64,000 nt of DNA from Acidobacteria bacterium Mor1 (GTDB taxonomy: Bacteria > Acidobacteriota > Polarisedimenticolia > Polarisedimenticolales > Polarisedimenticolaceae). The stretch lies in the NCBI GenBank assembly GCA_001664505.1, contig CP011806.1, forward strand, positions 1,216,400-1,280,399, written 5' to 3'. A program made the position numbers and the translations under genes. Of the stretch, positions 31,404 to 49,526 are shown piece by piece. Within the stretch, counting starts at the first letter, position 1; every line of letters starts with the position of its first letter. Below the pieces are notes generated by a model. That model saw only the letters and a program-made list of their open reading frames with translations. It searched no databases and had not been told where the DNA came from.

Positions 31404-31431
31404 CCCGAGGTCTCGCCAACTCACCCGATAG

Positions 31432-31460
31432 AAAAATAGGGAGCCCCGAGAGGCTCCCTA
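31432..31460 (-). terminator. Rho-independent terminator, minus strand
   Basis: On the minus strand TAGGGAGCC and GGCTCCCTA form a 9-bp stem with a 6-base loop, followed by TTTTT. It ends 10 bases after the stop of the small membrane protein gene at 31470. Confidence 0.85.
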
Positions 31461-31469
31461 TGAGGTTGT

Positions 31470-31622: not shown

Positions 31623-31644
31623 GACCCCTCCGGAAGGTCGTTAC

Positions 31645-31833: not shown

Positions 31834-31886
31834 GAAAGCGAATCCGTCAAATCAGACAAAAGAACTGCGAGATGTCGCCTCGAACG

Positions 31887-32045: not shown

Positions 32046-32564
32046 CTGACTTCGACCTATCAGTTGCGGCCAACAAGGTGGACGTTGCTGACCGTGCCTA
32101 CGCGATTCACGGTACACCAGGCTCAGCGAATAAAACCGCAACCAGTGATGAAGGCGTTTTCTACGGACAACAAATACCTACCAGCCACAACCGAACTTGC
32201 CCAGCACTCGGGTTGTTACCCGTACTTTCCCAACACTAACCCGGGGTTTCGTGCAGACACGACACCCTCACTCAGCTCAACTCTTGACGGGAATTACTCG
32301 TAACGTGTGCGATGGCCCTGAAAGGCCATCCCATAGTATGCACAACAGGGTCTAGACCAGTTGATTCTTAACTACCAATAAACAGGACCTAGATAGCAGC
32401 GTCAAACACCCCCTGAGAGGCCAGAGAATCCCCAAGGTCAGGCAAACTAAGTCGAACCATCTATGCTATTGAGTGTAGAGCCACGGATGTGGCTGTTCAT
32501 TACCTCTTTTAGCCTCACCCGAGATCGGCTGCCCTAACCTCCTGGGGCAGCCTTTCCTTGGGAC
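32046..32564. other. Gene-free stretch with several hairpins
   Basis: No convincing gene is seen. GATGGCC/GGCCATC (near 32310) and AGCCAC/GTGGCT (near 32480) can pair. The 8-bp GGCTGCCC/GGGCAGCC hairpin at 32527-32552 lies just past the stop of the 288-residue gene and may end its transcript, though it lacks a T-tract. Confidence 0.4.
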
Positions 32565-33431: not shown

Positions 33432-33473
33432 GAGGGAAGTGCAGCCGGGCTGTTGATTTTGGAGGTACCTTCT

Positions 33474-33941
33474 TTACGACGCAGACTTCCAGGCAGAGAC
33501 TACGAGGTTCTTGAGGGATTCCACTAGGTGTTCCACGATGGTCTCGCACAAGACGAAGTAGCCACGAAGGCGAACAAGCCGGGCCTTCCCCTTCCCATGC
33601 TGTTCGAGAGCTTCACGGTACTCGTAGTCGATGTCCACGATGGTCGGCTTGAACACATTCTCAACGGTTCGTGGTGAGGTTAGGAACTCGACAAAGGCGA
33701 GAAAGCGGGCTCTTCCCGTCAGCTCTGACCTTGCCGGAACATGTCGCCTCCGGTTGTCTTCCCGAAACTTGGCAAGCAGCTCAGCAACTTTCCAGCTGCG
33801 TGAGAATTCCGGTTTGCTCTCGAGCTGGAACGTAATCGTGGCTTCACCAGTAGCTGACCGGAGGAATTCGTTCAGTTCGTCCGCACCCTTGATGGAGCCA
33901 TCCTTTGCGATGGACACGACGAATTCGCGTTCGAATCCCAT
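33474..33941 (-). CDS. Hypothetical protein sharing a C-terminal domain with its neighbour
   Basis: The 155-residue protein has an N-terminal alpha/beta part (FEREFVVSIAKDGSIKGADE) and a helical C-terminus (about 85-155) with TIVDIDYEYREALEQHGKGK, RLVRLRGYF and a final NLVVSAWKSAS. The same C-terminal pattern is present in the protein encoded just upstream (AILDMRHEHFEALHEGKKWK, LLRGYW, VVQLWKAAS). It starts directly after the stop of that gene. No known family is recognised with confidence. Confidence 0.65.
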   Translation of the reverse strand: MGFEREFVVSIAKDGSIKGADELNEFLRSATGEATITFQLESKPEFSRSWKVAELLAKFREDNRRRHVPARSELTGRARFLAFVEFLTSPRTVENVFKPTIVDIDYEYREALEQHGKGKARLVRLRGYFVLCETIVEHLVESLKNLVVSAWKSAS

Positions 33942-34448
33942 CTACGAAGCCGCCTTCCAAAGCTGAACCACAAGCTTGACCACGGAGATGGGAAGCTGAG
34001 CGACAACGGCAGACCAGAAGGACCAGTAGCCACGAAGAAGGGTGAACCGGGCCTTCCACTTCTTGCCCTCGTGTAGGGCTTCGAAGTGCTCATGGCGCAT
34101 ATCCAGAATGGCGGGCTCCAGTATCTTGTCGAACGTGCCCTTGGAAAATAAGCAGCATGCGAAACGAAGCAGAGCAGAGCCAGGCACGGCAAGAATCACT
34201 TTCTTCCGCCCGCCACCAGACGAACTCGCGGGTCGGTGATGGTCGGGCTGCACGCGGAACGCAGGGTACCTTGACACGATGTACTCAACGACTTGGGACG
34301 CTGTGTCCTCTGGTGGAATGCCAGCACCAAGCGAGTGCCTGATCAGAACAAAGACTTGGCGACGCTCCTCTTTGCTTAGGGCTAACCCGATGCGATGTAG
34401 TCGCTCGTAAACGTATTGCTCCAACTCAACGTCCAGCGACTCGTACAT
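33942..34448 (-). CDS. Hypothetical protein coupled to PadR gene, paralogous C-terminus
   Basis: The 168-residue protein starts at the ATG at 34448, which overlaps the PadR stop (TGATG) and has GGAGGGG upstream. Its N-terminal 60 residues are helical (LEQYVYERLHRIGLALSKEE). The C-terminal 70 residues share a domain with the next protein, ending in an amphipathic or membrane-associated helix (LPISVVKLVVQLWKAAS). The D-x-x-x-E-x-x-x-A-L and L-R-G-Y pattern loosely recalls linker domains near PadR-associated membrane proteins, but I cannot name it. Confidence 0.65.
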   Translation of the reverse strand: MYESLDVELEQYVYERLHRIGLALSKEERRQVFVLIRHSLGAGIPPEDTASQVVEYIVSRYPAFRVQPDHHRPASSSGGGRKKVILAVPGSALLRFACCLFSKGTFDKILEPAILDMRHEHFEALHEGKKWKARFTLLRGYWSFWSAVVAQLPISVVKLVVQLWKAAS

Positions 34449-34741
34449 CAGCACCCCTCCGGCAAGAGGGAGGCACCACGAAGCTGCCAAGCAGCAAGCA
34501 CCTGCTGACCAAGACCCGTGATGGTGAAGAGACGCCGGGGCATCCCTGCCTCACCAGGGTCCTTCTCAAGCCGAGACTCAACGTAGCCCTTGTCAGCCAT
34601 CCGGCTCAGGGTCACGTAAACAGTCCCCCGCTTCAGCTTGTCAGGGGCAGCCTTGACCATCTCAAGCCCGTACATATCCCGCTTGTTCACGAGGAGTTCG
34701 AGGATTAGGGCTTCTTTCGGAGAGAGATTCAGTGAGTTCAT
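34448..34741 (-). CDS. PadR-family transcriptional regulator
   Basis: The 97-residue protein is a short PadR: LSPKEALILELLVNKRDMYGLEMV, then a winged helix with RGTVYVTLSRMADKGYVESR and the wing MPRRLFTITGLGQQVL. It lacks the long C-terminal dimerisation helix of larger PadR proteins, so it belongs to the short PadR-s2 type. A perfect dyad overlaps its start codon, suggesting autorepression of the four-gene operon it leads. Confidence 0.92.
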   Translation of the reverse strand: MNSLNLSPKEALILELLVNKRDMYGLEMVKAAPDKLKRGTVYVTLSRMADKGYVESRLEKDPGEAGMPRRLFTITGLGQQVLAAWQLRGASLLPEGC

Positions 34742-34756
34742 ACAGGGAGTATGAAC
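34736..34756. promoter_or_regulatory. Perfect inverted repeat overlapping padR start, likely operator
   Basis: GTTCATAC and GTATGAAC are exact 8-bp arms separated by 5 bases. The left arm contains the start codon of the PadR gene. PadR regulators bind dyads of this size, often in their own promoter. Confidence 0.65.
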
Positions 34757-35079
34757 GAGTCTTACAAACCTGTCAACCCACCCGGAAATGCGTCAGAAAT
34801 TGGGATAAATACAGCATGTCGAAATTTCTGTTTTTTTTGAAAGGGGCGAGCGGGTTTTCGGGAAGAGCCCACGTGGCCATCCAGGACGCAAGAGCGCCCA
34901 ACACTGCGCTCAGGACGAGCATGAGAAGCTGGAGAAGGAGTTCTCCCATACTTCGACTGTACCCCGAGGCATGGCCACGGGCAAATCAGCCCCCTCCCAA
35001 ATACGGGAATCCGACTAAACGTCTCAAGTCCCTTAGGAAATATCAACAGTGAGACACCACATCAGGAAGGGACTCGAAG
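34757..35079. other. Promoter gap between padR and the HNH gene, no gene seen
   Basis: It includes an eight-T run near 34830-34840 and GC-skewed sequence. The frames present on either strand have no ribosome-binding site and no recognisable product. It must hold the padR promoter. Confidence 0.4.
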
Positions 35080-35613
35080 ATGAAGGAACAGTGGCAGACA
35101 CTACCGGCCAACAGCCAGTACGAAGTATCAGATCAGGGTAGGGTTTGGAACAGGGAGACGGGGCATCTACTCAGTCCTGGCAAACAATCCAAAGGCTACC
35201 TGTCCGTCAACCTCTACATCAGACAACCCAAAGGAAAACCCAAGAAGCGGAAATGCCACCTGGTTCACAGGCTGGTTGCATCAGCTTTCCTTGGTCCCTG
35301 CCCCAAGAACCTAAGCGTCAACCACAAGGACGGAAACAAGACCAACAACCAGGTCTCCAACCTGGAGTACCTGACCCTCTCAGACAACATCCGCCATGCA
35401 ATGCAAACAGGGTTGATTGGTGTTCACGGTGAGAAGAACAACCGGGCCACCATCAGCAGAAGCAAGGCTTTCAGGATCCTGATCTGTTGTTGGTACGGAG
35501 CCAAAGACAGGAAGATCTCTGAGAGCTACAAGGTCAAGAAACACATCGTCTCGACATCAGGAACGGGCGTACCTAGAAGTGCTTCGACTGGTACCGAGAC
35601 AGAGAGGGATTGA
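35080..35613 (+). CDS. HNH homing endonuclease (NUMOD4 + HNH), C-terminus frameshifted
   Basis: Residues 1-60 are a NUMOD4 domain (WQTLPANSQYEVSDQGRVWN). HNH_3 follows with LVHRLVASAFLG and VNHKDGNKTNNQVSNLEYLT, whose His-Asn-His residues are intact. The C-terminus should be a DNA-binding HTH ending in D-I-R-N-G-R-T. That sequence is present in the +1 frame just after KKHIV (near 35551), so one base has been lost and the visible tail is wrong. Free-standing HNH genes of this type are common in phages and elements. Confidence 0.85.
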   Translation: MKEQWQTLPANSQYEVSDQGRVWNRETGHLLSPGKQSKGYLSVNLYIRQPKGKPKKRKCHLVHRLVASAFLGPCPKNLSVNHKDGNKTNNQVSNLEYLTLSDNIRHAMQTGLIGVHGEKNNRATISRSKAFRILICCWYGAKDRKISESYKVKKHIVSTSGTGVPRSASTGTETERD

Positions 35614-35695
35614 GGAAGACCGGCTAGATCGCTTGATTCTGGGTTGTTGTAGCCGTAAGTAGCTGGCCGGAGGTGCGCTATGACTGTTCGAAAGA

Positions 35696-35735
35696 ACTGC
35701 CAGTCACGCGCTCTCCCAGCTGAGCTACAGCCCCA
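35696..35735. repeat. attachment repeat (40 bp), distal copy, tRNA-Ala 5' half
   Basis: It is identical to 30317-30356 and is the original 5' half of the tRNA-Ala gene. The stop codon of the minus-strand kinase gene (TAG) is formed by tRNA bases 8-10 within it. Confidence 0.9.
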
Positions 35736-37476
35736 CATGCGCGGAAGATCGGGCATTCTGGCACGCCGTCCCCTGGGGGTCAAGGAACGGCGCATGGTCT
35801 TTCCATTCGGGCCCATCCCGGCGCCCCGGGCGGCGAATCCTGCGGGGCGCCGCCTTGCCCACAAGGACGATATCCCGGGCGCTCAGCTCCACCCCGTCGA
35901 CCCGGCTGTCCCCCGGAATCCGGGTCCAGGCGGCCAGATCCACCGCCGGAAGCTCGAGCATGCCGACGAAGATCTCCGCGGGCCAGCAGGCGTGGCGGCC
36001 GGCGACCCAGAGGCGCTCACGGGGATCCTGCAGGCTGCCGGGTTCGAACGCGGCCGCCTGGATCTCCAGACCGGCAGGCCCCCAGACACGGCGCGGGCCG
36101 AGGTTTCCGAGAACGGGGTCGCCCCCTGCGTCGTCGAGCAACACGATGGCGGATTCGTCCTCTTCCGGGCTGTACCAGAGCGAGACCACCGGGGTGCGAT
36201 CTCCGGACCGCCGCAAGGCGAACAGCCGAACAGGCTCGCTGTCCGGCGGCAAGGCAAGGGGCCGCAATCCACGGCCGGCACAGGCCTCACGCAGACAGTC
36301 GACGCCGAAGGCACGGATGGTTGCCGAGCCGCGGCCCTCGGCGCCCCTCGCCACCAACAGCGTGGGCGATCCCTCCCGGTCCACCAGCAGCGCGTCGGTC
36401 ACCGGCGCGTCCCCCATCAGGCTCGCGACCTGCCGGCCCCAGACGTTGACCACCCGTACCGTGGCACCCTCGACCTCGAGGCCCCAGGCGCGATCGTTCA
36501 TCTTCCAGGCCCAGCCTGCCGGCAGGAACAGCATGAGCAACGCCGCCAGGACCATGGGCAGCCAGACCTGGCCGAAGTCCGATGGGATCCTGCGCCCGGC
36601 TCGCCCGATCCGGAGATGCCCTCCGCTGCGATAGAGGCTGAATCGATCGGGATGGCGCTCGATCGATTCCAGGGCCTGCTGCATCTTGCCTGCGCTCTGG
36701 AAACGGTGGGCCGGGTCCGGAGACAACGCCTGGAGCAGCACGCCCCGCACCGACGGCGGCAGCGACTCCGAGACTCCCTCGGGCCCCGCGGGAGGTTCGC
36801 CGGCCAACGCCTCGTGGCAAAGCGCCGCGCAGGAGTAGAGGTCGGCGCGATGATCGACCGCCTCCCCTGCCGCGACCTCCGGCGCCATGTACTCCCGAGT
36901 CCCCTCGGCGGTCGCCCCCGCGTCGGGAATTCCCATCCGCCGGGCCAGGCCGTAGTCGACGACCCGTACCCCCTCGTCGGTCAGCATGACGTTGTGCGGC
37001 TTGATGTCCCGGTGAGTCACCCCTCGGCCATGGAGGTACTCGAGGGCCGATAGCACCGGCACGACCACCGAAAGCGCCGCGGCGAAATCCATCGGGCCGT
37101 CCCGGCGCAGCCGTTCCGCCAGGCTCTCCCCCTCGAGGTATTCGCTGACCAGGTAGGGCTGCCCCGACTCCTCCCCCAGGTCGAGGTTGCGTACCAGGGC
37201 CGGGTGGTCGAGGTGCAGCAGCAGCTCGGGACGCTGCTCGAAGGATTCGCCGCTGTCCGGCGCCGGCTCCGCGATGACCTTGAGGGCGACGACCCGCGAC
37301 AACCACTGATCGGCCGCCCGGTAGACCTGGCCCATGCCGCCGCGCCCGATACGCTCGACGATCTTGTAGCGGCCGGCGAACAGGGCTCCCGGCCGCAACT
37401 CCTGTTCTTCGAGAGCCGCCCGGCGCCGCTCTGGATCGACCCTTCCGGTCGGGCGACTGTCGCCCTTGTGGGTCAA
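35725..37476 (-). CDS. Ser/Thr protein kinase (PknB-like) with C-terminal extracytoplasmic domain
   Basis: The 583-residue protein has a Hanks-type kinase domain (about 35-290) with the glycine loop GRGGMGQVY, VALKVI, HRDIKPHN, DYG in place of DFG, and APE. A transmembrane helix (about 310-330, VLAALLMLFLPAGWAW) is followed by a beta-rich domain of about 220 residues with WSPEEDESAIVLLD-like repeats, probably a propeller-like sensor in the periplasm. The start overlaps the stop of the FHA gene by four bases, so the two proteins are made together. The last residues lie in the tRNA-Ala fragment. Confidence 0.92.
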   Translation of the reverse strand: MTHKGDSRPTGRVDPERRRAALEEQELRPGALFAGRYKIVERIGRGGMGQVYRAADQWLSRVVALKVIAEPAPDSGESFEQRPELLLHLDHPALVRNLDLGEESGQPYLVSEYLEGESLAERLRRDGPMDFAAALSVVVPVLSALEYLHGRGVTHRDIKPHNVMLTDEGVRVVDYGLARRMGIPDAGATAEGTREYMAPEVAAGEAVDHRADLYSCAALCHEALAGEPPAGPEGVSESLPPSVRGVLLQALSPDPAHRFQSAGKMQQALESIERHPDRFSLYRSGGHLRIGRAGRRIPSDFGQVWLPMVLAALLMLFLPAGWAWKMNDRAWGLEVEGATVRVVNVWGRQVASLMGDAPVTDALLVDREGSPTLLVARGAEGRGSATIRAFGVDCLREACAGRGLRPLALPPDSEPVRLFALRRSGDRTPVVSLWYSPEEDESAIVLLDDAGGDPVLGNLGPRRVWGPAGLEIQAAAFEPGSLQDPRERLWVAGRHACWPAEIFVGMLELPAVDLAAWTRIPGDSRVDGVELSARDIVLVGKAAPRRIRRPGRRDGPEWKDHAPFLDPQGTACQNARSSAHVGL

Positions 37477-39290
37477 GGGCGGCGGGTACCTTCGCCGAAC
37501 TTCTTGACCTTCTGCACCAGGTTCTTGCGGGCGATCCCGGCGTCGACGGCAGCAGAAGTGTAGTTGTCGTTGTGCTTGCGCATCAGCCGCTCGAAGTACA
37601 TCAACTGGAACATGCTCTTGGCCTCGCGCCAGCGGCAGCTCAGGGCGTGGACCAGCTGGTCCATGGGCGAATGCCGTTCTTCCTGGACCCGGGCCAACGG
37701 CGTCGCGTCCCGGTCGAGAATCGAGTCGACGGCATGCAGCACCGCCTGATGCATCATGCTGCGCAGTTCAGCGATGTTGCCCGGCCAGGCATGCTGGCGC
37801 AGCGAATCGCAGAGTTCACTGGAGAGCCCGCGGAAGTGCTTGTGCGCGCCGTAACCGAATGCCCGCACGAAATGCCAGGCCAGGGGCACGATGTCCTCGG
37901 GGCGTTCCCGTAGCGGGGGCAGCACGATCGGCTGATCGAGGATCCGCTCCAGCAGCACCGGGGCGACGAATCCCCGCTCCTGCAGCACCTCCGGTTTGCG
38001 GCGGCTGGCCAACACGAGATGAGGATCCCGGCGCCCCTCTTCGATCCAGCGGGCCAGCAGGATCTGGTCCGCTGCGCTCAGATCCGCCACCTCGTCGAAG
38101 AACAGGGTGCCGCCGCGGGCCAGGCCGGCCCATCCGTCCTGCCGCTCGATCGAGAGCTGGGCCTCCAGTTCGTTTTCCGCCAGCTCGCCGCAGCGCACCA
38201 CCAGGTGCGGACCGGCCGAACGGACGCCACGCCCATGGAGATAGCGGGACACCTGGTCCGCTCCGGTTCCGGTCTCACCGCAGATCAGCGTGACCGGCCC
38301 GGTGGACTCCACGGCCGACGCCACCTGGGCGCGCAAGCGGCACATGACCTCGCTATGGCCGAGCAGGGCGCCACAGTCGGCGGGCTGATCGCCGAAGCCC
38401 GGGAAGGACGCACCCTGCGACAGCGCCTGGCGAGTCCGCTCGGCTTCGGCGCGATGGCTCTCGTTTTCCAGCACGATACCCAGGGCCTGAAGCACCGGCC
38501 GGTGGGTCCGCAGGCTTGCCCGCAACATACCGACCCGGTCGGGCGGGCACTCGAACGAAAGGCAAAGCGGCCGGGGCGCCCGGGTGAGCTCGGACACGAC
38601 CATCACGGTACCGGGGAAACCCTCGATGTCCCGCACGCGAATCTCGTCACCCTCGGTCTGTAGCAACGCATCGGCCGCTTCGTTCAGCGGGATCGACAGA
38701 TCGCCGGAACGGGTTCGCACGTTCCAGCGGCCGAGCACCGGCTCGAAGGCCCAGAGTCGAATCCCGTCGGCGCCGATGGCCTGGCGCACCCGCTCGAGGG
38801 AACCGTCGAGATCGGGGCCCCCGCCGTCACCGCGATCACGAGACGCCGCCATCAGTTCCGACGCCAGCCCCAGCACATCCCCGTCGCCGCGCTCTCGCTC
38901 GCCGGTCAGCAGGCGAAAGACCCGCTCTCCGATCTGCTCCCCTGTCGGGATCGCGCGCTGGGGTCTTGCCGGCGCGGAAGCCAGGACCAACACCCGGTCG
39001 CTGACCGCATCGGCCAGGTAGACCATGACCGTGCCGAGCAGGATCCGGTCGCCGGGTTCCAGCAGCGCATCGGTGACCCGGCTGCCGTTGACCCAGGTGC
39101 CGTTGGCCGAGCCGAGATCGAGGATGCGCACGCCGGAACGGTCCAGACGGACCTCGGCGTGGATCGCCGAGACACCGTAGCCGTTGAGCCGGAGGTCGCT
39201 GTCCTCGGCGCTTCCGATGCGAATGGAACCAGGGCACAGCGGTACCCGCTTTTCAGACGCAGCCGCACCTTTGACGTGCAGGTAGAACAA
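37473..39290 (-). CDS. FHA protein with GAF-like region, degenerate AAA+ domain and Fis-type HTH
   Basis: The 605 residues contain an FHA domain (1-100, with RIGSAEDSDLRL, SAIHAEV and NGTWVNG) that binds phosphothreonine, a GAF-like region (about 160-285), an AAA+ domain like sigma-54 activators (310-520) and a Fis-like C-terminal helix. The Walker A reads GETGTGAD (338-345), with the lysine replaced by alanine, and the GAFTGA loop is missing entirely. Walker B (LFFDE) is kept. It is therefore very unlikely to drive sigma-54. It may be a phosphorylation-controlled DNA-binding protein regulated by the coupled kinase. Confidence 0.85.
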   Translation of the reverse strand: MFYLHVKGAAASEKRVPLCPGSIRIGSAEDSDLRLNGYGVSAIHAEVRLDRSGVRILDLGSANGTWVNGSRVTDALLEPGDRILLGTVMVYLADAVSDRVLVLASAPARPQRAIPTGEQIGERVFRLLTGERERGDGDVLGLASELMAASRDRGDGGGPDLDGSLERVRQAIGADGIRLWAFEPVLGRWNVRTRSGDLSIPLNEAADALLQTEGDEIRVRDIEGFPGTVMVVSELTRAPRPLCLSFECPPDRVGMLRASLRTHRPVLQALGIVLENESHRAEAERTRQALSQGASFPGFGDQPADCGALLGHSEVMCRLRAQVASAVESTGPVTLICGETGTGADQVSRYLHGRGVRSAGPHLVVRCGELAENELEAQLSIERQDGWAGLARGGTLFFDEVADLSAADQILLARWIEEGRRDPHLVLASRRKPEVLQERGFVAPVLLERILDQPIVLPPLRERPEDIVPLAWHFVRAFGYGAHKHFRGLSSELCDSLRQHAWPGNIAELRSMMHQAVLHAVDSILDRDATPLARVQEERHSPMDQLVHALSCRWREAKSMFQLMYFERLMRKHNDNYTSAAVDAGIARKNLVQKVKKFGEGTRRP

Positions 39291-39343: not shown

Positions 39344-41779
39344 ATGGCACAGCCGAGACCTTCATTTACGCCCATACGGCGCCGAAAGCTCACCGCACTA
39401 TTGCGAGAGCGGGAATTCGGTTCCGGGCCCGTGGGTTACAATCCGCATGGTGAACAGGCCACTTCCCCCGACCGCCGACCGGCCCTGCTTCTCGGCGCCC
39501 TGAGAGCCTCGGTGCTGAACTCCCTCGGAGCGCATCTCGCGGGTCAGATCGTCGGCCCCTTGCGTTGGGTCGGACTCGCCGTCGTGGCCGCGGTCACGGC
39601 TCTGCTCTGCGGCCCGGCGCTCAACGTGGAACTCGACTGGAGCAACCGGTCGATGAACGCTCTCAGCGCCGATGAGGGAGCCTTCTATCGGGACTTCCAG
39701 AGCACCTTCGGCAGTGACGAGGTGCTGGTCGCCACCCTTACCCGGAACGATCTCCTCAGTAGCCCGGGACTCGCCGAACTGGATCGACTGACCCGTCACA
39801 TCGAACAGTTCGACGGCGTGCGGCGGGTGATGAGCCTGACCAACGCCACCCGTCTCGCCGCGGGAGACTACGGCGCCGAGGAACGTCCGCTGGTCGATCT
39901 CGAGCGGCCGGTCGATACCGCATCCATCGAAGGCTTCCTCCAGGGTTCGCCGTGGAGTTCGATGCTGATCTCCGCCGACCGGCGCACCGCCGGCATCGCC
40001 GTCGAGATCCACGAGCGGCAGGGAGACGATCTCTATCGCGGCCGACTGGTCGAGGACCTGCGCGGTTTGAAGCGCGGAGCGGAACCGGGCAGCGCGATCC
40101 ACCTGACGGGAATCACCGCTCAGAAGTACGACACGACCCGCTTCATTCAGCGGGACCAACGGGTGGTGCTCCCGCTATCGATCCTCGTCATGGCCTTCTG
40201 CCTCGCCGTGGCGACCCGCCGCATCTCCGGCGTGCTGTTGCCGCTGGCGGTCACCGGCATCAGCCTGCTCTGGACCGTCGGCATCTACCATCTGCTCGGC
40301 TTCAAGCTGAACGTGATCACCTCGCTCTTGCCTCCGGTGGTGCTGGTGCTTTCCGTCACCACCGGACTCCACCTGCTCCAGGAATGGAGAGACCGGGCGG
40401 TCGACGCCGCCTCTCCCCGGGAGGCGGTGCTGGAGGTGCTGCGCAGGCTGGGCATGCCGGTCCTGCTCACCGGGATCACCACGGCCATCGGACTCGCAGC
40501 CCTCGGCACCAGCGACGTCCCCGCGGTACGCCAGTTCGGTCTGTTCGCGGCCCTCGGGGTCACCGTCAGCCTGTTCCTGAACCTCACGGTGCTTCCCGCC
40601 GTGCTGGTCTGGATCCCGCTGCCCCGCTCGGCCCCCCGCAGCGTCGGACTGATCGTCAGCGGCTTGATCCAGGTCGCCAACTGGAGCGTGACCCGCCCGC
40701 GTGGGGTGATGCTGCTGGCCGCCGCGGGCACCCTGCTGCTGGCAGCCGGTATCGGCCGCATCCACAACAACACCGATCTGATCCGCTTCCTGTCCCCCGA
40801 CGCCGAGTTGGTCAAGGACACCATGTTCATCGATGAGCGGCTCGTCGGCGCGAACTCGCTGGAGCTGGTGGTCTCCCGGCGGGACGCCGCCCCCCTTACC
40901 GCCCTCGACGACATGAATCGGATCGAGCGGTGGATGGAGCGGATCGGCGAGCTCGAACCGGTGACCCACGTGCTCGGCATTCCGGCGGTCATCGCCGAAC
41001 TCCATCGTGCCGAGTCCGGCGCGGAGACCACCGCGCTTCCCGACGATCCCGAGGACCTGCTGTATTGCTTCGACCTGCTCGAAGCCTCGGACCGCCAGGC
41101 GGAACTGCGCCGTTTCATCACGCCGGAGTTCGATCGAGCCCGGATCAACGTGCGGCTCCACGCCATCGGCACCCACGAGGCGACCGGGGTGTTGGAGCAG
41201 ATCGAGCGGCTCTCCGGTGAGATCCTCGGCGCCGGCTACACGGTGCACCCCACCGGCAGCTTCTACCTGGTGACCCTGGACTCCAACCGGCTGGTATCGA
41301 CCCAGCTGCGCAGCTTCGGCCTGGCGCTGGCGGTGATCCTCGGCATCATGGGGCTCTGGTTCCGCTCGCTGACCCTGCTCGCCGCGGCGCTGATCCCCAA
41401 CCTGGTGCCGATCGTCTGGCTCCTGGGGCTGATGGGCTGGCTCGGGATCGACCTTTCCACCGCCACGGCCATGGTCGCCTCGGTGGTGCTGGGCATCGCC
41501 GTCGACGGCACGATCCACTATCTGGCCCGCTACTGCCGGGAAAGCTCCTGCGGCTGCTCGGCCAGCGCAATTCGGCAGACTACCCGGGGAACCGGGCGGG
41601 TGCTGGTCACCGCATCCCTGGTGATTGCCCTCGGTTTCTGGGTCGGGGCGAGCGGCAGTTTTCGCCCGACCCTATATTTCTCGGTGTTGAGTGGGGCGAC
41701 GATCCTTGGCGCCCTCCTTTGCGATCTTCTAATTCTTCCAGCATGCTTGATGCTGGTTCGGCCGGAGCCCCGGAGCTGA
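39344..41779 (+). CDS. RND-superfamily (MMPL/HpnN-type) exporter
   Basis: The 811 residues show two halves, each with one TM helix, a large loop and a five-helix bundle. SSD/MMPL signatures include TGITTAIGLAALGTSDVPAVR and, in the second half, AVDGTIHYLARYCRE. Family members export lipids or hydrophobic products across the inner membrane. The first TM begins at about residue 75, so a GTG start at 39512, giving a short N-terminus, is likely the true one; neither start has a strong ribosome-binding site. It is the first gene of the polyketide operon and the natural candidate to export its product. Confidence 0.85.
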   Translation: MAQPRPSFTPIRRRKLTALLREREFGSGPVGYNPHGEQATSPDRRPALLLGALRASVLNSLGAHLAGQIVGPLRWVGLAVVAAVTALLCGPALNVELDWSNRSMNALSADEGAFYRDFQSTFGSDEVLVATLTRNDLLSSPGLAELDRLTRHIEQFDGVRRVMSLTNATRLAAGDYGAEERPLVDLERPVDTASIEGFLQGSPWSSMLISADRRTAGIAVEIHERQGDDLYRGRLVEDLRGLKRGAEPGSAIHLTGITAQKYDTTRFIQRDQRVVLPLSILVMAFCLAVATRRISGVLLPLAVTGISLLWTVGIYHLLGFKLNVITSLLPPVVLVLSVTTGLHLLQEWRDRAVDAASPREAVLEVLRRLGMPVLLTGITTAIGLAALGTSDVPAVRQFGLFAALGVTVSLFLNLTVLPAVLVWIPLPRSAPRSVGLIVSGLIQVANWSVTRPRGVMLLAAAGTLLLAAGIGRIHNNTDLIRFLSPDAELVKDTMFIDERLVGANSLELVVSRRDAAPLTALDDMNRIERWMERIGELEPVTHVLGIPAVIAELHRAESGAETTALPDDPEDLLYCFDLLEASDRQAELRRFITPEFDRARINVRLHAIGTHEATGVLEQIERLSGEILGAGYTVHPTGSFYLVTLDSNRLVSTQLRSFGLALAVILGIMGLWFRSLTLLAAALIPNLVPIVWLLGLMGWLGIDLSTATAMVASVVLGIAVDGTIHYLARYCRESSCGCSASAIRQTTRGTGRVLVTASLVIALGFWVGASGSFRPTLYFSVLSGATILGALLCDLLILPACLMLVRPEPRS

Positions 41780-41780
41780 C

Positions 41781-42377
41781 ATGCGCCCTCTGAAGAACCT
41801 CTCGCTGATCCTGATCGCTCTCCTGCTCGCGACGCCGGGCGCCGCCGATAACATGTTCGACCCGAGCAACGGGACGATCGTCGAACGGTCCACGGTGCCC
41901 CCTGGAGAGAAACGCATTCAGGGGGAGGTTCGCCTGGTCGACCGGGACGGCCACCTGGTCGTCCAGACGGTGCTCTACTCCAAGGTGCTCAAGCGAGTCC
42001 TCGGCAGCATCGTGGAGAAAGAAGAAGGCAACTGGCCGGCGGCCCACGACGACTCCATCGCCTATCGCAACTCCCTGAACGAGACGGTCACCATGGTGGT
42101 CGATGCCCCGCGGGGGGTCGGCAACTCCCGTCAGCGGGCGGTGCTGATCGAGTTCTTCGTGTGGAACGAGAAGGGCTTCGTCGTCCTCTCGGGCGCATCG
42201 ATCGACGAACGATCCGATGAGTTCCTGCGGGTGCGGCGACTGGCGGCCCCGACCAACACTCTCGAACTGAACGTGGACTACGTGCAGGAGAACATGGCGC
42301 TGATCCTCGCCGACTCCTTCGAGCTCTCCCGGGAAGCGGCCGACGCGATGATCGAGCGGCACCGGAGGAAACCGTGA
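41781..42377 (+). CDS. Exported hypothetical protein in polyketide operon
   Basis: The 198-residue protein has a signal peptide (to about 22) and a beta-rich body (GEVRLVDRDGHLVVQTVLYS, then RAVLIEFFVW). The C-terminal helix ends REAADAMIERHRR. No family is recognised. It starts two bases after the exporter and its stop overlaps the GTG of the polyketide synthase, so it is part of the operon. A periplasmic partner of the exporter is possible. Confidence 0.75.
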   Translation: MRPLKNLSLILIALLLATPGAADNMFDPSNGTIVERSTVPPGEKRIQGEVRLVDRDGHLVVQTVLYSKVLKRVLGSIVEKEEGNWPAAHDDSIAYRNSLNETVTMVVDAPRGVGNSRQRAVLIEFFVWNEKGFVVLSGASIDERSDEFLRVRRLAAPTNTLELNVDYVQENMALILADSFELSREAADAMIERHRRKP

Positions 42378-43423
42378 GAGTCGCCGCGGTCGGCTCCGCC
42401 CTCCCCCCGCACTACTACGATCAGGAAGCTCTTCTCGGCGCCCTGCGCAAGGCCTGGGCCGAACGCCATCACAACGTCGGGCGGCTCGAAGCGCTGCACC
42501 GCAACGTGCTCGTCGGCGGCCGGCATCTGGCGTTGCCGATGGAAGACTACGACGGCCTGACGAACTGGGGCGCGGCCAACGACGCCTGGATCCGGGTGGC
42601 CCAGGAGGTCGGCGAACAGGCGGTGCGCGACGGCCTGAAGAAGGCCGGACTTCCGGCCAGCCGCATCGACGCCCTGATCTTCGTCACCGTCACCGGGGTG
42701 GCGACCCCCTCGATCGACGCGCGGCTTTGCAACCGGATGGATCTGCGCAGCGACGTCAAACGCATGCCGATCTTCGGCCTCGGCTGCGTCGCCGGTGCCG
42801 CCGGTATCGCCCGGGCCGCCGACTACGTGCGGGCCTACCCCGACCAGATCGCCGTGCTGCTCTCGGTGGAGCTCTGCTCGTTGACGCTCCAGCGGGAAGA
42901 CCTCTCGATCCCCAACCTGATCGCCAGCGGCCTGTTCGGCGACGGTGCGGCGGCGGCGATCGTCGCCGGCTCCGAGGTCGACCTGCCAGGGCCGGAGATC
43001 GTGGCCACCCGCTCGGTCTTCTATCCGGACTCGGAACGGGTCATGGGCTGGGACATCAGCGAGCGGGGCTTCGGCATCGTGCTCTCCGCCGACGTACCCC
43101 AGGTCGCCGAGCAGCATCTGGGACACGATGTCGACGCCTTCCTCGAGGACCAGGGACTGAAGCGAGGCGACATCGCCCACTGGATCTCCCATCCCGGCGG
43201 ACCCAAGGTGCTCGAGGCGATGCAGCGGGCCCTGGGCCTCGGCGAGGAGGCCATGGCCGAGAGCTGGAAGACTCTGCGGGAGGTGGGCAACCTCTCCTCG
43301 ACCTCGGTCCTGCTGGTGCTCGAGGCGACCATGGAACAACATCGGCCCGAACCCGGTTCTTACGGTCTGATGCTGGCGATGGGGCCCGGATTCTGCTCGG
43401 AGCTGGTGCTGCTGCGATTCTGA
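42374..43423 (+). CDS. Type III polyketide synthase
   Basis: The 349-residue protein is a chalcone-synthase-like enzyme. The catalytic cysteine is in FGLGCVAGAAG, the histidine in ISHPGGPKV and the asparagine in VGNLSSTSV, all in the right order and spacing. It condenses an acyl starter with malonyl-CoA units without an integrated ACP. The GTG overlaps the previous stop. In this operon the starter is probably a fatty acyl group loaded by the ligase/ACP pair, giving an alkyl-resorcinol or alkylpyrone-like product. That product is inferred, not proven. Confidence 0.95.
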   Translation: MRVAAVGSALPPHYYDQEALLGALRKAWAERHHNVGRLEALHRNVLVGGRHLALPMEDYDGLTNWGAANDAWIRVAQEVGEQAVRDGLKKAGLPASRIDALIFVTVTGVATPSIDARLCNRMDLRSDVKRMPIFGLGCVAGAAGIARAADYVRAYPDQIAVLLSVELCSLTLQREDLSIPNLIASGLFGDGAAAAIVAGSEVDLPGPEIVATRSVFYPDSERVMGWDISERGFGIVLSADVPQVAEQHLGHDVDAFLEDQGLKRGDIAHWISHPGGPKVLEAMQRALGLGEEAMAESWKTLREVGNLSSTSVLLVLEATMEQHRPEPGSYGLMLAMGPGFCSELVLLRF

Positions 43424-43504
43424 CGCGGCGACCCGGGAAACCTTGGCCCCCTAGCGCGGCTGGTGCACAATGGAACCGCACCTGCGAAAGGGTATCCAGG
43501 GTCC

Positions 43505-44050
43505 GTGAACACACCTCTGCTCTATCTCGGATTGATCCTGCTGGTCGCGGCCGAGCGGTTGCTCGAGCTCTGGATCTCCAACCGCAACGCCCGGCGGCTG
43601 CTGCTCCGCGGCGCCGTGGAAGAGGGCGCGTCCCACTACCCGGCGATGGTGCTGGTTCATACCGGCTTCCTCTTCGCCTGCCCGCTGGAAGTCTTCCTGC
43701 TCGACCGGCCGTTCATCCCGGCGCTCGGCTACCCGGCGCTGGGGGTGGTCGTGGCGACCATGGCCCTGCGCTACTGGGTCATCGCCACCCTGGGCGAACG
43801 CTGGAACACCCGGGTGATCTGCCTGCCGGCCAAACCCCTGGTGGTGGCCGGCCCCTTCCGCTTCATCAAGCATCCCAACTACGTCGCCGTGGTGTTCGAA
43901 CTACTGGCGCTGCCGTTGGTCCACTCGGCATGGATCACCGCAATCCTGTTCGGCATCGCCAACGCCTTCGTGCTGCGCACCCGCATTCGCGTGGAAGACG
44001 CCGCCCTGGCCCGCCACTCCCGTTCGGGACTGGCCGCAGGAGCGTCCTGA
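43505..44050 (+). CDS. ICMT-like membrane methyltransferase (isoprenylcysteine carboxyl methyltransferase family)
   Basis: The 181-residue protein has about five membrane helices and the family's C-terminal motif GPFRFIKHPNYVAVVFELLALPL, shared by ICMT/PEMT enzymes, then RTRIRVEDAAL. Type III PKS clusters in other bacteria often pair with such a gene, which O-methylates the lipid phenol. The start is a GTG at 43505. Its TGA overlaps the next ATG (TGATG). Confidence 0.88.
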   Translation: MNTPLLYLGLILLVAAERLLELWISNRNARRLLLRGAVEEGASHYPAMVLVHTGFLFACPLEVFLLDRPFIPALGYPALGVVVATMALRYWVIATLGERWNTRVICLPAKPLVVAGPFRFIKHPNYVAVVFELLALPLVHSAWITAILFGIANAFVLRTRIRVEDAALARHSRSGLAAGAS

Positions 44051-44334
44051 TGGGCGGGGGCGCGGCGCCGGAAGCGCTGGACCCGATGATCCTCGCGGGC
44101 ATCGAGAAGATCGCCCGGGAGCATCTGCGCTTCGAAGGCACGATTCGCGGCGACGAGCAGCTGGTCGAGGTATTGGAGCTGGACTCGCTGCGCAAGCTGA
44201 CCCTGGTGGTCGAGGTCGAAAACCACTTCAAGATCTGCCTCGACGAGGGAAGCGAGGACGAGATCGTCACCACCCGAGACCTGGTGCAGCTGATCGGGAG
44301 GAAACTTGGCCCAGACGCCGACCACGCTGATTGA
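44050..44334 (+). CDS. Acyl carrier protein
   Basis: The 94-residue protein is acidic with the 4'-phosphopantetheine site ELDSLRKL (serine in the DSL motif). The helix VVEVENHFKICLDE follows, as in stand-alone ACPs. ATG and the preceding stop overlap. It likely carries the acyl chain activated by the next gene's ligase. Confidence 0.9.
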   Translation: MGGGAAPEALDPMILAGIEKIAREHLRFEGTIRGDEQLVEVLELDSLRKLTLVVEVENHFKICLDEGSEDEIVTTRDLVQLIGRKLGPDADHAD

Positions 44335-46048
44335 GCTGCTGGAACGGGTCGCAGGCGAGGAACAAACCGGCCTGCGCTTCGTCGACCGGCGGGAGCGGGA
44401 GCGTTTCTGTTCCTGGCGGGAGATCCGCGAACGGGCCATGTCGGTGGCCGGCGGGCTGCAGCGCCTTGGAATCGGCTCCGGCGACCGGGTGGCCCTGGTC
44501 TACCCCACCGGCCCCGAGTTCTTCGACGCCTTCTTCGGCACCCTGCTGACCGGCGGCGTTCCGGTGCCACTCTACCCGCCGGTGCGGCTCGGCCGACTCG
44601 AGGAATACCACCGGCAGACCGCCGGCATGCTGCGGGCTTCGGGCGCCCGTCTGGTACTGGCCGACAACCGGGTTCGCCGCATTCTGGGCAGCACCGTCGA
44701 ACGGGCCCGGCCGGAACTCGGTTGCCGCACCCTGGAATCCCTGGACGCCGGAAGCTTCCGTCCCGTCGACGTCGACCCTGAAGACCTAGGCCTGGTGCAG
44801 TTCTCATCGGGCACCACCGTGGATCCCAAACCGGTGGCGCTGAGTCACCGGGCGTTCGTGACCCAGGCGGCGTTGATCAACAGTTTCTGGCCGGAGAACG
44901 AAGGGGTCCATCACACCGGCGTCAGCTGGTTGCCGCTCTATCACGACATGGGCCTGATCGGCTGCGTCGGACCTGCGCTGGAACGGCCCGGCGTGCTGAC
45001 CCTGCTGCCTCCCGAGGCGTTCATCGCCCGGCCGGCGCTCTGGCTGCGGGCGATCTCCCGCCACCGCGGGACGATCTCCCCCGCCCCCAACTTCGCCTAC
45101 GCGCTGTGCGTCGACCGGATTCGCGACGAAGATCTAGAAGGGGTAGATCTGAGTTGCTGGCGGGTGGCGCTCAACGGCGCCGAGACCGTCGTTCCCGGCG
45201 TGATGCGCGCCTTCGCCGAACGGTTCGCCCCCTTCGGCTTTCGCGAGTCGGCGATGACGCCGGTCTACGGCCTGTCGGAAGCGGCGCTGGCCGTGACCTT
45301 CAGCAACCTGGCGACGCCGCCGACGGTCTCCCGCTTCGATCGCGAAGCGCTGTGCCGTCGACAGGCCCAACCCGACGACTCCGGCCGGGAGCTCACCGCC
45401 GTCGGCCGCCCGCTGCCCGGCTTCGAGCTGCGGATCGAGGACGATCACGGCGCCCGGCTGGAAGCGGGGCGCATCGGGCGGGTCAAGATCGCCGGGCCGT
45501 CGCTGATGAGCGGCTACCTGGGCAAGCCGGAACTGACCGAGAAGATGTTCGACGGCACCTGGCTCGACACCGGCGACCTCGGCTTCGTCTGGGACGGAGA
45601 ACTGTTCCTGACCGGCCGGGCCAAGGACATGCTGTTGCTCCGCGGCCGCAACCACGCTCCCGACGAGGTCGAGCGGGCGGTCGACGAGGTCGAGGGAGTG
45701 CGCACCGGCTGCGCGGTGGCGGCCAGCTACCTGCCCGACGGCGCCAGCGGTGAAGAGCTGCTTGTGCTTGTCGAGGCGCGCAAGGAGGTCCCCGCCGGTT
45801 CCTACGAGGACATCGCGACCGAGTGCCGGGCCGCGGTGCTGGCCGGTGCCGGACTGGCGGCGCACCAGGTGATCGTGGTCGCTCCCGGCACCCTGCCCCG
45901 GACCTCGTCGGGCAAGCTGCGCCGTCAGGAAGCGCTGAACCGGTTCCTCGCCGGCACGTTGACTCCGCCGGAGAAGGTCACGGCGCTGCGCATCGCCAAG
46001 GAGATGGCCCGTTCGACCCTGGCCTACACCCGGGCGGGACGTTCGTGA
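44306..46048 (+). CDS. Fatty acyl-AMP ligase (FAAL)
   Basis: The 580-residue ANL enzyme begins at a TTG with GGGAGGA in front, overlapping the ACP gene by 29 bases. Motifs are LVQFSSGTTVDPKPVALSH (P-loop-like), WLPLYHDMGLIG (typical of FAAL), VYGLSEAALAVTFS, and TGDLGFVWDGELFLTGRAKDM near the C-terminal hinge. FAALs adenylate fatty acids and pass them to an ACP, not to CoA. Placed next to an ACP and a type III PKS, it should load the starter. Confidence 0.93.
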   Translation: MAQTPTTLIELLERVAGEEQTGLRFVDRRERERFCSWREIRERAMSVAGGLQRLGIGSGDRVALVYPTGPEFFDAFFGTLLTGGVPVPLYPPVRLGRLEEYHRQTAGMLRASGARLVLADNRVRRILGSTVERARPELGCRTLESLDAGSFRPVDVDPEDLGLVQFSSGTTVDPKPVALSHRAFVTQAALINSFWPENEGVHHTGVSWLPLYHDMGLIGCVGPALERPGVLTLLPPEAFIARPALWLRAISRHRGTISPAPNFAYALCVDRIRDEDLEGVDLSCWRVALNGAETVVPGVMRAFAERFAPFGFRESAMTPVYGLSEAALAVTFSNLATPPTVSRFDREALCRRQAQPDDSGRELTAVGRPLPGFELRIEDDHGARLEAGRIGRVKIAGPSLMSGYLGKPELTEKMFDGTWLDTGDLGFVWDGELFLTGRAKDMLLLRGRNHAPDEVERAVDEVEGVRTGCAVAASYLPDGASGEELLVLVEARKEVPAGSYEDIATECRAAVLAGAGLAAHQVIVVAPGTLPRTSSGKLRRQEALNRFLAGTLTPPEKVTALRIAKEMARSTLAYTRAGRS

Positions 46049-47193
46049 AGACTCGCGAGCTGCTGGTCGTCGGCGGAGGCCCCGCGGGGCTGGCCGTGGC
46101 GATCCGCGCTCGACAGCGGGACGTTTCCGTCACCGTGATCGATGCCCGCAAGCCTCCCATCGACAAGGCCTGCGGCGAGGGGTTGATGCCCGACGGTGTG
46201 GCGCTCTTGCAGGAACTGGGAGTGGAGTTGACGGCAGGAGATCGGCGTGACTTCGTCGGCATCCGCTATCTCGACGGCGCGACCCGGGCCGAGGCCCGCT
46301 TTCCCACCCGGCCCGGATGGGGCGTGCGGCGCCGGACGCTGCACCAGGCGATGGTGCGCCGGGCGGAAGACTGTGGGGTCGATCTGCGCTGGGGGGTCAC
46401 CGCGACCGGATACCGGGATGGGGTCGTGGAGACCCGGGAGGGTTCCTTCGAGGCGCGCTACGTGGTTGCCGCCGACGGCCTGCGTTCGCCGATGCGACGA
46501 CTCGCCGGGCTCGAGGGTGCGCCGGCCAAGCGCCGACGGTTCGGCCACCGGCGTCACTACCGGATCGCTCCCTGGAGCGAACATGTCGAGGTCTACTGGC
46601 AGGAGGGCTGCGAGGCCTACGTCACTCCGGTGGCCGAGGACCAGGTCGGGATCGCTGTGCTCTCCGACGACCCGGGCCGGGCCGAGGGATCCTGGCTCGA
46701 TCTGTTCCCTGCGCTTGCCGAACGGGTCGCGGGAGCGGAGTGCGTTTCCAGGAACCGGGGCGCCGGCCCGTTGCGCCAGCGCGCAAGCCGGGTCTGCAGC
46801 GGCCGCCTGGCCCTCGTCGGCGACGCCGGCGGCTATCTCGACGCGATCACCGGCGAAGGGCTCTCGGTTGCCTTCCATCAGGCCTTCGCGGTGGTGGATG
46901 CCATCGAGGCGAACGACCTGCCGCGCTACGCCCGGGAGCACCGCCGCATTCTTCGCCTGCCCGACGCTATGACCGGTCTGCTATTGGCCATCGAACGCCG
47001 CCCCCGGCTTCGGCGCCGGGTTGTGGCGGCCCTCGCCGCCGAGCCCGACGTTTTCGCGCGCTTCCTTGCGGTGCACGCCCGGGAGGCAGCTCCGATGTCG
47101 ATCGGCGCCGGCGGACTCGCCCGGTTGCTTCGACGGGTGATCGCGGGCACTCCGGCGTCCGGATCCCGCTCGGTTGCGCGGCCGGTTGCGTGA
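46045..47193 (+). CDS. FAD-dependent oxidoreductase (geranylgeranyl reductase/halogenase-like)
   Basis: The 382-residue flavoprotein has the dinucleotide motif VVGGGPAGLAVAIRARQ, CGEGLMPDGV (the substrate side), VVAADGLRSPMRR, and GDAGGYLDAITGEGLSVAFH (second FAD motif). The GTG at 46045 overlaps the ligase stop. It may reduce or hydroxylate the polyketide product, by analogy with flavin monooxygenases that tailor alkylresorcinols. It is the last gene of the operon. Confidence 0.88.
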   Translation: MKTRELLVVGGGPAGLAVAIRARQRDVSVTVIDARKPPIDKACGEGLMPDGVALLQELGVELTAGDRRDFVGIRYLDGATRAEARFPTRPGWGVRRRTLHQAMVRRAEDCGVDLRWGVTATGYRDGVVETREGSFEARYVVAADGLRSPMRRLAGLEGAPAKRRRFGHRRHYRIAPWSEHVEVYWQEGCEAYVTPVAEDQVGIAVLSDDPGRAEGSWLDLFPALAERVAGAECVSRNRGAGPLRQRASRVCSGRLALVGDAGGYLDAITGEGLSVAFHQAFAVVDAIEANDLPRYAREHRRILRLPDAMTGLLLAIERRPRLRRRVVAALAAEPDVFARFLAVHAREAAPMSIGAGGLARLLRRVIAGTPASGSRSVARPVA

Positions 47194-47445: not shown

Positions 47446-48732
47446 CTACACATGACGGCAAGCGGAAATGGTGAGACCCCTCGGCAGCCGGGTCCGCTCG
47501 GGATCTCCGCATGCCTCATCGAGCTGTCCCTGTTCCACTATTGCATTCGTTAGGTTCGCGCCGCTGAGCGTCGCGCCGCTCAGCATCGCCTTGGTCAAGT
47601 CCGCGCCGATTAGTGTCGCGCTGTGCAGCTGCGCCCGGCTCAGGTCCGCGCCCACGAGGTCCGTGTAGCGCAGGTCCGCGCCAATAAGGCTCGCGCCACT
47701 CAGGTCCGCGCCCATAAGGCTCGCGCCACTCAGGTTCGCCGCCTCGCTCGGCGTAGGTCCTCCTAGGAACGCACCCCCAAGTTTTGCCCTGCGCAGATCC
47801 GAATCGAGTAGCTTCGCCGATCTCAAGTCCGCAAGGGCTAGATTTGCCCGGCCCAGGTCCGCCCCAACCAGATCTGCCCCGCGCAGGTCCGCCCCCCTCA
47901 GGTCCGCGTCGGTCAGGTTCGCCTTGCTCAGGCTTGCTCCGCCCAGGTCGGCACCACTGAAATCTGCACGAACCAGGCCCGCTTCGATCAACCGCGCTTG
48001 GCTCATGTTCACACCGCTCGACCGAAGATCGTAGAGAGTCTCGGAGGACAAGTCGATTCCCCCGAAATCCATGCCGACTGGCAGTTCCGCCCGGATAGAC
48101 CAGAGTGTCCAAAACAACTGCTCCCGCTCAGGCGCGGTAGCGAGTTCGCTCAGTTCGCCATTGACCTGAACGTATCGGTGTGGCCGGAGGGACTTCGAGA
48201 TAGAGATGAGCTGAGCAGCCAGTGGGCCAGACAGCACAAACCACCCTTCGTTGTCCTGTCGTCCTTCCAAGTGCTCCTGCCCCACCCGCTTCAGAGCATC
48301 CAAGAGCATCGGGACTTGAGCTTGCCGGTTCGCTCCCTCAAGCAGATACGTTTGTTTCTCGATCTTCTTGTTCTGAAGTTCGACTAGCGTGTTTTGCTTC
48401 TTGATTAGCTGCCCATGCCAAAACAACAGCATCGTAGGTAAGCTCGCCAGCAAAAGGGCCAACACACCTACTCGAACGTAGCGCCTAACGATTGCGGCGA
48501 TTAGATCTCCGGTTTCCTTGCTCGAGAGCTTCCCTGCCTTGATCGACTCGACCCAATCGTGGGCGGCGACGACGAGGTTCGTTCCTAGTGTGAGTTTGAC
48601 AGCATTGCGACCAATGAAACCGAGCAGCTCGTTTCTTGTCGACAACTCCGCGCGGAGCCGTCGATTCTCCTCGGCGAGCTCGACGTTCTTGTCAGCCAGC
48701 TCCCTAAGTTGCGTATGTTGGTTTTCTTGCAA
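47446..48732 (-). CDS. Membrane-anchored pentapeptide-repeat protein with coiled coil
   Basis: From a TTG at 48732 with GGGAG upstream, the 428-residue product starts with a coiled coil (ADKNVELAEENRRLRAEL). A conserved helix block (AIVRRYVRVGVLALLLASLP, about 95-115) provides a transmembrane helix, and a second coil follows. From about 245 to 410 come pentapeptide repeats (A-D/N-L-x-x), forming a quadrilateral beta-helix. The frame is open further upstream to 48879, but the coil start and ribosome-binding site favour 48732. It is related to the protein at 56892-57920 in its N-terminal half. The function is unknown; it may scaffold TIR proteins through the repeats. Confidence 0.8.
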   Translation of the reverse strand: MQENQHTQLRELADKNVELAEENRRLRAELSTRNELLGFIGRNAVKLTLGTNLVVAAHDWVESIKAGKLSSKETGDLIAAIVRRYVRVGVLALLLASLPTMLLFWHGQLIKKQNTLVELQNKKIEKQTYLLEGANRQAQVPMLLDALKRVGQEHLEGRQDNEGWFVLSGPLAAQLISISKSLRPHRYVQVNGELSELATAPEREQLFWTLWSIRAELPVGMDFGGIDLSSETLYDLRSSGVNMSQARLIEAGLVRADFSGADLGGASLSKANLTDADLRGADLRGADLVGADLGRANLALADLRSAKLLDSDLRRAKLGGAFLGGPTPSEAANLSGASLMGADLSGASLIGADLRYTDLVGADLSRAQLHSATLIGADLTKAMLSGATLSGANLTNAIVEQGQLDEACGDPERTRLPRGLTISACRHV

Positions 48733-49526
48733 GGCATGCTCCCTTAGCAGGGGAACCGCAGGCGGCCAAGCAACTTGAAGGCTCGAGGCCCGATCAGTTG
48801 CCGACTTCACTCCGCGGCTTCGTCCACTTGAAAAGCCCCGCTTGCCAGGAGAGTGCCAGCAGCTTGAGGGCACCGTCAAGTTCGGAAGTCGGTAGGCATG
48901 CGACCGTTCGTGTGATTACCTCGGTTTCCATCCACCAAGGATGCGGATGAATGGCTCAACCGCCCATGCCGAAGAGGACCAGCTGGGTTGACGAAGCGAC
49001 CCCAAAACTGACGCTCCGACAATCTCTGAAAGGGAACCCAATTCGATCAAGGTCCGGCGACTTTGGTTGACAAAGAAGTCCCCGAACCCAATGTGCCGGC
49101 ACCCCCAGAGGTAAGGTCGTCCCCCCGATTCTCCAGACGGCTTCTCTCTCAGCCGAAACTACGCTCCGATCGCTTCCGCCTCCGTAGCGTCCGGGGATCC
49201 ATATCTCCGAGTCTCTCGACGCCTCGTTGCAGATCTGAAACGAGGCATTGAGCGCGGCACGCCGACCAGAAAGAGCAACTGAGGCAGTCGACGATATCGC
49301 CGTCGCCAGCGCTTGCTCCGACCTCGGGAGTTCTTGCGGGGAACTGAAGCACGTCCCCCCCGCCGCCAGCCTTTCGAGAACTCTATTTCTTGACTCCGTC
49401 CAGGGACGCGCAATACCATCCGCATTAGTTCCTAGGTGGGATGGCCTTCCCTCGGCCACGGTTCGGGGGAGCGCCAAGGTCGCGGTATCTCCTGGTTGTA
49501 GTGCATTTTTGTGACGGGGGGAACGC
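48733..49526. other. Divergent gap of about 790 bases, no gene seen
   Basis: It separates the minus-strand pentapeptide gene from the XRE-TPR gene. A long minus-strand frame (48956-49678) has unnatural composition and runs across the XRE start, so I reject it. The promoters of both flanking genes must lie here, but no clear -10/-35 pair was found. Confidence 0.4.

What the first reader, a model, noticed from the sequence alone, without database searches (positions are those of the whole stretch)
39344..47193. Polyketide operon: type III PKS with FAAL, ACP, ICMT-like, FAD enzyme and RND exporter
Seven genes, mostly overlapping or closely spaced, contain all the parts to activate a fatty acid, extend it with a type III PKS, tailor it and export it. 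Using a FAAL/ACP pair to feed a type III PKS, which normally takes acyl-CoA, is less common and suggests direct transfer from ACP, giving a membrane phenolic lipid.
Basis: partly seen in the sequence, partly recalled or inferred. Interest (0 to 1): 0.65.

Follow-up and report, generated by a model that had tools for sequence, protein, structure and literature searches.

The report
Known-type phenolic-lipid (alkylresorcinol) gene cluster
This is a real seven-gene cluster for making a fatty, phenol-headed membrane lipid, but this same gene cluster was published in 2016 and its fatty-acid-loading trick was worked out in Myxococcus xanthus in 2011, so it is ordinary.

Summary
In detail: 39344-47193 holds seven co-directional, mostly overlapping genes: MMPL/RND transporter, a secreted-looking 198-aa orphan protein, type III PKS, ICMT-like methyltransferase, ACP, FAAL and FAD oxidoreductase.

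The window lies in the 5.985 Mb acidobacterial genome Mor1. Cummings et al. 2016 (PMC5006271) reported this very locus: its antiSMASH interval, 1238773-1279822, is exactly this PKS gene plus and minus 20 kb. They noted it matches the M. xanthus alkylresorcylic-acid cluster, whose FAAL-fed type III PKS was characterised by Hayashi et al. 2011.

My own comparison agrees. PKS, ICMT, ACP, FAAL and FAD occur in this order in many Acidobacteriota and Myxococcota loci, and every FAAL found beside the PKS has an ACP gene just upstream. The PKS keeps Cys-His-Asn and the resorcinol-type Trp226. The FAAL carries the insertion that separates FAALs from acyl-CoA ligases. Close relatives with the same PKS but no FAAL in the genome show that FAAL loading is an option, not a rule.

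Only the RND transporter and orphan protein are peculiar to this genome; their export role is inferred. Direct acyl-ACP transfer cannot be shown from sequence. Verdict: already known, low interest.

The parts
39344..41779 (+). MMPL/RND-family transporter, 811 aa (first gene of the operon; a later start is possible)
   Evidence: Pfam MMPL 2.7e-38; NCBIfam best HAE3 215 bits, below cut-off; HpnN and MmpL models weaker
41781..42377 (+). 198-aa protein with signal-peptide-like N-terminus, orphan
   Evidence: No Pfam/NCBIfam match; no homologue in 40 other genomes of the class; coding-type GC3; AlphaFold single-sequence model pLDDT 38, uninformative
42374..43423 (+). Type III polyketide synthase, 349 aa; C138-H273-N306 triad and W226
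   Evidence: Pfam Chal_sti_synt N and C; nearest solved structure M. tuberculosis PKS11, E 5.8e-101; triad and Trp226 invariant in 94 aligned sequences
43505..44050 (+). ICMT-like membrane methyltransferase (GTG start 43505; 43463 possible)
   Evidence: Pfam ICMT 2.9e-26
44050..44334 (+). Acyl carrier protein with phosphopantetheine Ser in LELDSL
   Evidence: NCBIfam acyl carrier protein 8e-7; conserved D-S in all 40 related ACPs
44306..46048 (+). Fatty acyl-AMP ligase, 580 aa
   Evidence: Best NCBIfam model is fatty acyl-AMP ligase, 426 bits (below cut-off 600); best solved structures are FAALs; about 24-residue insertion absent from the genome's own acyl-CoA synthetase-like proteins
46045..47193 (+). 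FAD-dependent oxidoreductase/monooxygenase, geranylgeranyl-reductase/UbiH-like
   Evidence: Pfam FAD_binding_3 7e-15; NCBIfam GG-red-SF 108 bits
37473..39290 (-). Divergent FHA + NtrC-like AAA protein (possible regulator, not part of the pathway)
   Evidence: Pfam FHA and Sigma54_activ; no GAFTGA and no Walker A GxxxxGK[ST]

Best explanation
An FtpA-type alkylresorcylic acid/alkylresorcinol pathway. The FAAL adenylates a long-chain fatty acid and loads it on the holo-ACP encoded next to it. The type III PKS takes the acyl chain (most likely from that ACP) and extends it with malonyl-CoA. It closes the ring by aldol condensation to an alkylresorcylic acid/alkylresorcinol. The ICMT-like enzyme methylates the ring product and the FAD enzyme hydroxylates it, giving a methoxylated hydroquinone/quinone phenolic lipid. 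The RND transporter and the 198-aa secreted protein may move the lipid to the outer envelope. Shown here: gene content, catalytic residues, FAAL insertion, conserved order. Shown in the literature for the relative: FAAL involvement in alkylresorcylic acid synthesis in M. xanthus. Inferred: starter source in this organism, tailoring positions, export.
For: This very locus is published as matching the M. xanthus alkylresorcylic-acid cluster (PKS 58%, methyltransferase 54%, AMP-dependent synthetase 54%, monooxygenase 47% identity; interval equals this PKS gene +/-20 kb). PKS-ICMT-ACP-FAAL order in 33 compared loci, two more PKS-ACP-FAAL and one PKS-ACP-FAAL-FAD; ACP directly upstream of FAAL in 36 of 36. 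Myxococcus, Corallococcus, Archangium and Pyxidicoccus carry the same order. Cys-His-Asn and Trp226 conserved in all 94; Trp226 aligns with PKS11 residue 230, the position called the resorcinol-specific Trp in MMAR_2474/ArsB/FtpA. FAAL insertion present. An AcpS-family PPTase is in the genome. M. xanthus FAAL-ACP acyl transfer shown in vitro; C18:0 in vitro entry for alkylresorcylic acid in a FAAL review.
Against: Alkylresorcylic acid was looked for in extracts of the Moorea-Mor1 consortium and not found. Same-family genomes keep PKS, ICMT and FAD but have no FAAL in the genome, so the PKS family can work without it. The genome also has acyl-CoA synthetase-like proteins that could supply acyl-CoA. 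Profile scores for the FAAL and PKS are below the NCBIfam equivalog or subfamily cut-offs.
Confidence: 0.85

Rival explanations
1. Same pathway, but the PKS takes its starter as acyl-CoA (or from the fatty-acid-synthesis ACP); the FAAL/ACP pair is an accessory for scavenged fatty acids.
For: Close PKS relatives (65% identity) in same-family genomes without any FAAL; a large FAAL-free group; triad and Trp identical in both groups; characterised acyl-CoA-using relatives such as ArsB/ArsC.
Against: ACP is directly upstream of FAAL in all 36 FAAL loci beside the PKS and the pair sits inside the operon; the M. xanthus counterpart is reported as FAAL-dependent (title of Hayashi 2011).
Confidence: 0.25
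2. The PKS makes alkylpyrones rather than resorcinols/resorcylic acids.
For: Nearest solved structure is PKS11, described as making methyl-branched alkylpyrones.
Against: Trp at the ArsB-281 position favours aldol closure; FtpA, SrsA, PKS10 and PKS11 that share it are listed as resorcinol-forming.
Confidence: 0.1
3. The RND transporter and 198-aa protein are an unrelated transport unit that happens to be co-transcribed.
For: Closest RND homologues in the class lie in genomes without a PKS match; RND/198-aa pair absent from all other compared PKS loci.
Against: The 198-aa gene overlaps the PKS start by 4 nt; other, non-orthologous RND genes lie near the PKS in L031, L056, L133 and L134; RND genes are reported in cyanobacterial type III PKS clusters.
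Confidence: 0.4

Closest known systems
Myxococcus xanthus FtpA alkylresorcylic acid cluster (Hayashi et al. 2011)
   Same: Type III PKS, methyltransferase, FAAL and monooxygenase with 47-58% identity and the same organisation (published comparison of this very locus); related Myxococcaceae loci show PKS-ICMT-ACP-FAAL-FAD
   Different: Here preceded by an MMPL/RND transporter and an orphan secreted-looking protein
Streptomyces griseus srsABC phenolic-lipid operon
   Same: Type III PKS plus methyltransferase plus hydroxylase logic
   Different: No FAAL/ACP pair described for it (own knowledge)
Cyanobacterial hidABC (hierridin) and planctomycetal three-gene operons
   Same: PKS + methyltransferase + FAD oxidoreductase making alkylresorcinols
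   Different: Gene order differs (PKS last) and no FAAL/ACP in the three-gene operon
Cylindrocyclophane CylA/CylB/CylI
   Same: Stand-alone FAAL loads an ACP in a pathway ending in a type III PKS
   Different: Type I PKSs lie between FAAL/ACP and the type III PKS
Azotobacter vinelandii ArsA/ArsB/ArsC
   Same: Type III PKS takes acyl chains from an ACP
   Different: Carrier is the ACP domain of a type I FAS, not a FAAL-loaded ACP

Membership tests
FtpA-type FAAL-linked alkylresorcylic acid cluster | PKS, ICMT-like, ACP, FAAL and FAD genes adjacent and co-directional | tested here: met
   published match to M. xanthus
FtpA-type FAAL-linked alkylresorcylic acid cluster | FAAL loads the clustered ACP, which feeds the PKS | not testable with these tools
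   Needs biochemistry; genomic linkage 36 of 36 only
FtpA-type FAAL-linked alkylresorcylic acid cluster | Product is alkylresorcylic acid | not testable with these tools
   Not detected in consortium extract by the authors
Type III PKS | Cys-His-Asn triad and chalcone/stilbene synthase family | tested here: met
Resorcinol-forming type III PKS | Trp at the ArsB Trp281 position | tested here: met
   W226 aligns with PKS11 residue 230; invariant in 94
FAAL (not acyl-CoA ligase) | FAAL-specific insertion after the GLSE motif | tested here: met
   About 24 extra residues against four acyl-CoA synthetase-like proteins of the same genome; top structural relatives are FAALs
Acyl carrier protein | D-S phosphopantetheine site | tested here: met
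   PPTase present
Hopanoid transporter HpnN / HAE3 / MmpL subfamilies | Score above the NCBIfam cut-off | tested here: not met
   HpnN 95 of 752 bits; HAE3 215 of 352 bits

The most novel reading that the evidence does not exclude
The RND transporter and the lineage-specific 198-aa secreted protein form a dedicated export pair that delivers the phenolic lipid or quinone to the outer envelope, a feature not described for FtpA-type clusters.
Probability: 0.3. Interest if true: 0.3.

Novelty: already known. Interest (0 to 1): 0.12.

Why it matters
Little new by itself. The comparison does give a ready test set: PKSs about 65% identical, with the same tailoring genes, some with a FAAL/ACP pair and some with no FAAL in the whole genome. 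That allows a clean test of what makes a type III PKS prefer acyl-ACP or acyl-CoA.

Tried and rejected
Novel FAAL-type III PKS coupling: rejected, published for M. xanthus and for this locus. Membership of the RND protein in the HpnN/MmpL/HAE3 families: rejected on score. DpgA identity of the PKS: 204 bits against a cut-off of 425, not met. A sigma-54 promoter upstream of the operon: no match near 39300; the two window hits are elsewhere and at chance level. Sigma-70 promoters and terminators in the region: no excess over shuffles. Fold of the 198-aa protein: single-sequence AlphaFold pLDDT 38, uninformative, so no fold search was run. Homologues of the 198-aa protein in the class: none in 40 other genomes. 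The Hayashi 2011 paper itself is not in the library; its content is cited through citing papers.

Full report
Observation. The seven genes are present as described on the + strand at 39344-47193. Pfam and NCBIfam give: MMPL/RND transporter; no match for the 198-aa second gene; chalcone/stilbene-type PKS; ICMT; ACP; AMP-binding/FAAL; FAD-binding oxidoreductase of the geranylgeranyl-reductase/UbiH type. Gene boundaries mostly overlap, and all seven genes, including the unannotated one, show coding-type third-position GC.

Identity of the locus. The window is bases 1216400-1280399 of a 5,985,000-base single-contig genome. Cummings et al. 2016 (PMC5006271) describe the 5.99 Mb acidobacterium Mor1, associated with the cyanobacterium Moorea producens JHB. 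They report one type III PKS cluster at 1238773-1279822. The PKS gene here is 1258773-1259822 with its stop codon, and adding 20 kb on each side gives exactly that interval. They state that the cluster matches the M. xanthus alkylresorcylic acid cluster (PKS 58%, methyltransferase 54%, AMP-dependent synthetase 54%, monooxygenase 47% identity). They did not detect the product in extracts of the consortium.

FAAL-type III PKS coupling is established. The M. [quoted passage not shown] The paper itself is not held in the library. A FAAL review lists alkylresorcylic acid with C18:0 and in vitro data, and describes the cylindrocyclophane FAAL pathway that also reaches a type III PKS. A M. xanthus FAAL-ACP pair was shown to transfer acyl chains to holo-ACP. 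A type III PKS review documents acyl-ACP use by ArsB/ArsC and germicidin synthase.

Enzyme features. The PKS is nearest, among solved structures, to M. tuberculosis PKS11. The Cys138-His273-Asn306 triad and Trp226 are invariant in 94 aligned sequences. Trp226 aligns with PKS11 residue 230, the position that literature on MMAR_2474, FtpA, SrsA and ArsB ties to resorcinol formation. The FAAL carries about 24 residues after the GLSE motif that four acyl-CoA synthetase-like proteins of the same genome lack, and its best structural relatives are FAALs. The ACP has the D-S site, as do 40 of 40 related ACPs; eight of those read DSV rather than DSL/DSM/DSI. One AcpS-family phosphopantetheinyl transferase is found in the genome.

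Conservation. PKS relatives were gathered from genome contigs (80 named loci) and unnamed relatives. The order PKS-ICMT-ACP-FAAL-FAD is found in 20 loci and PKS-ICMT-ACP-FAAL, some cut by contig ends, in 13 more. Two further loci read PKS-ACP-FAAL and one PKS-ACP-FAAL-FAD. All 36 FAAL loci have the ACP directly upstream of the FAAL. They include Corallococcus, Myxococcus, Archangium and Pyxidicoccus and many Acidobacteriota. On a quick PKS tree the FAAL label is clustered but needs at least a few gains or losses (7 by parsimony, 2 forced by well-supported branches), and a 38-row group, mostly Terriglobia-type acidobacteria, has no FAAL next to the PKS. Deep branches of this tree are poorly resolved. 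Two genomes of the window's own family keep PKS, ICMT and FAD together without FAAL or ACP, and neither has a FAAL elsewhere at E below 1e-40; one of them is rated 100% complete. So FAAL supply is a common but dispensable feature of this PKS family.

The transporter and the orphan gene. The RND protein scores below the cut-offs for HpnN, HAE3 and MmpL-type models. Its closest homologues in the class (35-46% identity) lie in genomes without a PKS match. The 198-aa protein has no homologue in 40 other genomes of the class and no usable structure model. Both are translationally close to the PKS gene (stop-start spacing of 1 nt, then a 4-nt overlap). Other RND genes occur near the PKS in a few loci, and RND genes are reported in cyanobacterial type III PKS clusters. 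Export of the lipid by this pair is plausible but unproven.

Verdict. Direct acyl-ACP transfer, the tailoring positions and the export step remain untested in this organism.

Noticed in passing
window 37473-39290 (-): FHA + NtrC-like AAA protein divergent from the operon lacks both the GAFTGA loop and a Walker A motif, so it is probably not a classical sigma-54 activator; it overlaps a Ser/Thr kinase gene (35725-37476).
   Followed up: partly
window 41781-42377 (+): 198-aa secreted-looking protein with no detectable homologue in the class and no family match, embedded between RND and PKS.
   Followed up: partly
L127 8037-8855 (-) (related genome G054): A class I methyltransferase gene (Pfam Methyltransf_12/25) is inserted between ICMT and ACP of the same cluster.
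   Followed up: partly
L021 9691-14166 (+): About 4.5 kb between ICMT and ACP, including a polyketide-cyclase/SRPBCC-like protein, in an otherwise conserved cluster.
   Followed up: partly
L129 and L128 (genomes G001, G005, same family): PKS, ICMT and FAD kept without ACP/FAAL, and no FAAL elsewhere in the genome: a natural comparison for starter choice.
   Followed up: partly
window 30000-36000: Stretch of about 55-57% GC against 65-69% on either side, with few long ORFs and an HNH-endonuclease-like ORF at 35080-35613 (by eye); may be a mobile or recently acquired segment.
   Followed up: no
window 47446-48879 (-): Pentapeptide-repeat protein next to the operon on the opposite strand.
   Followed up: no
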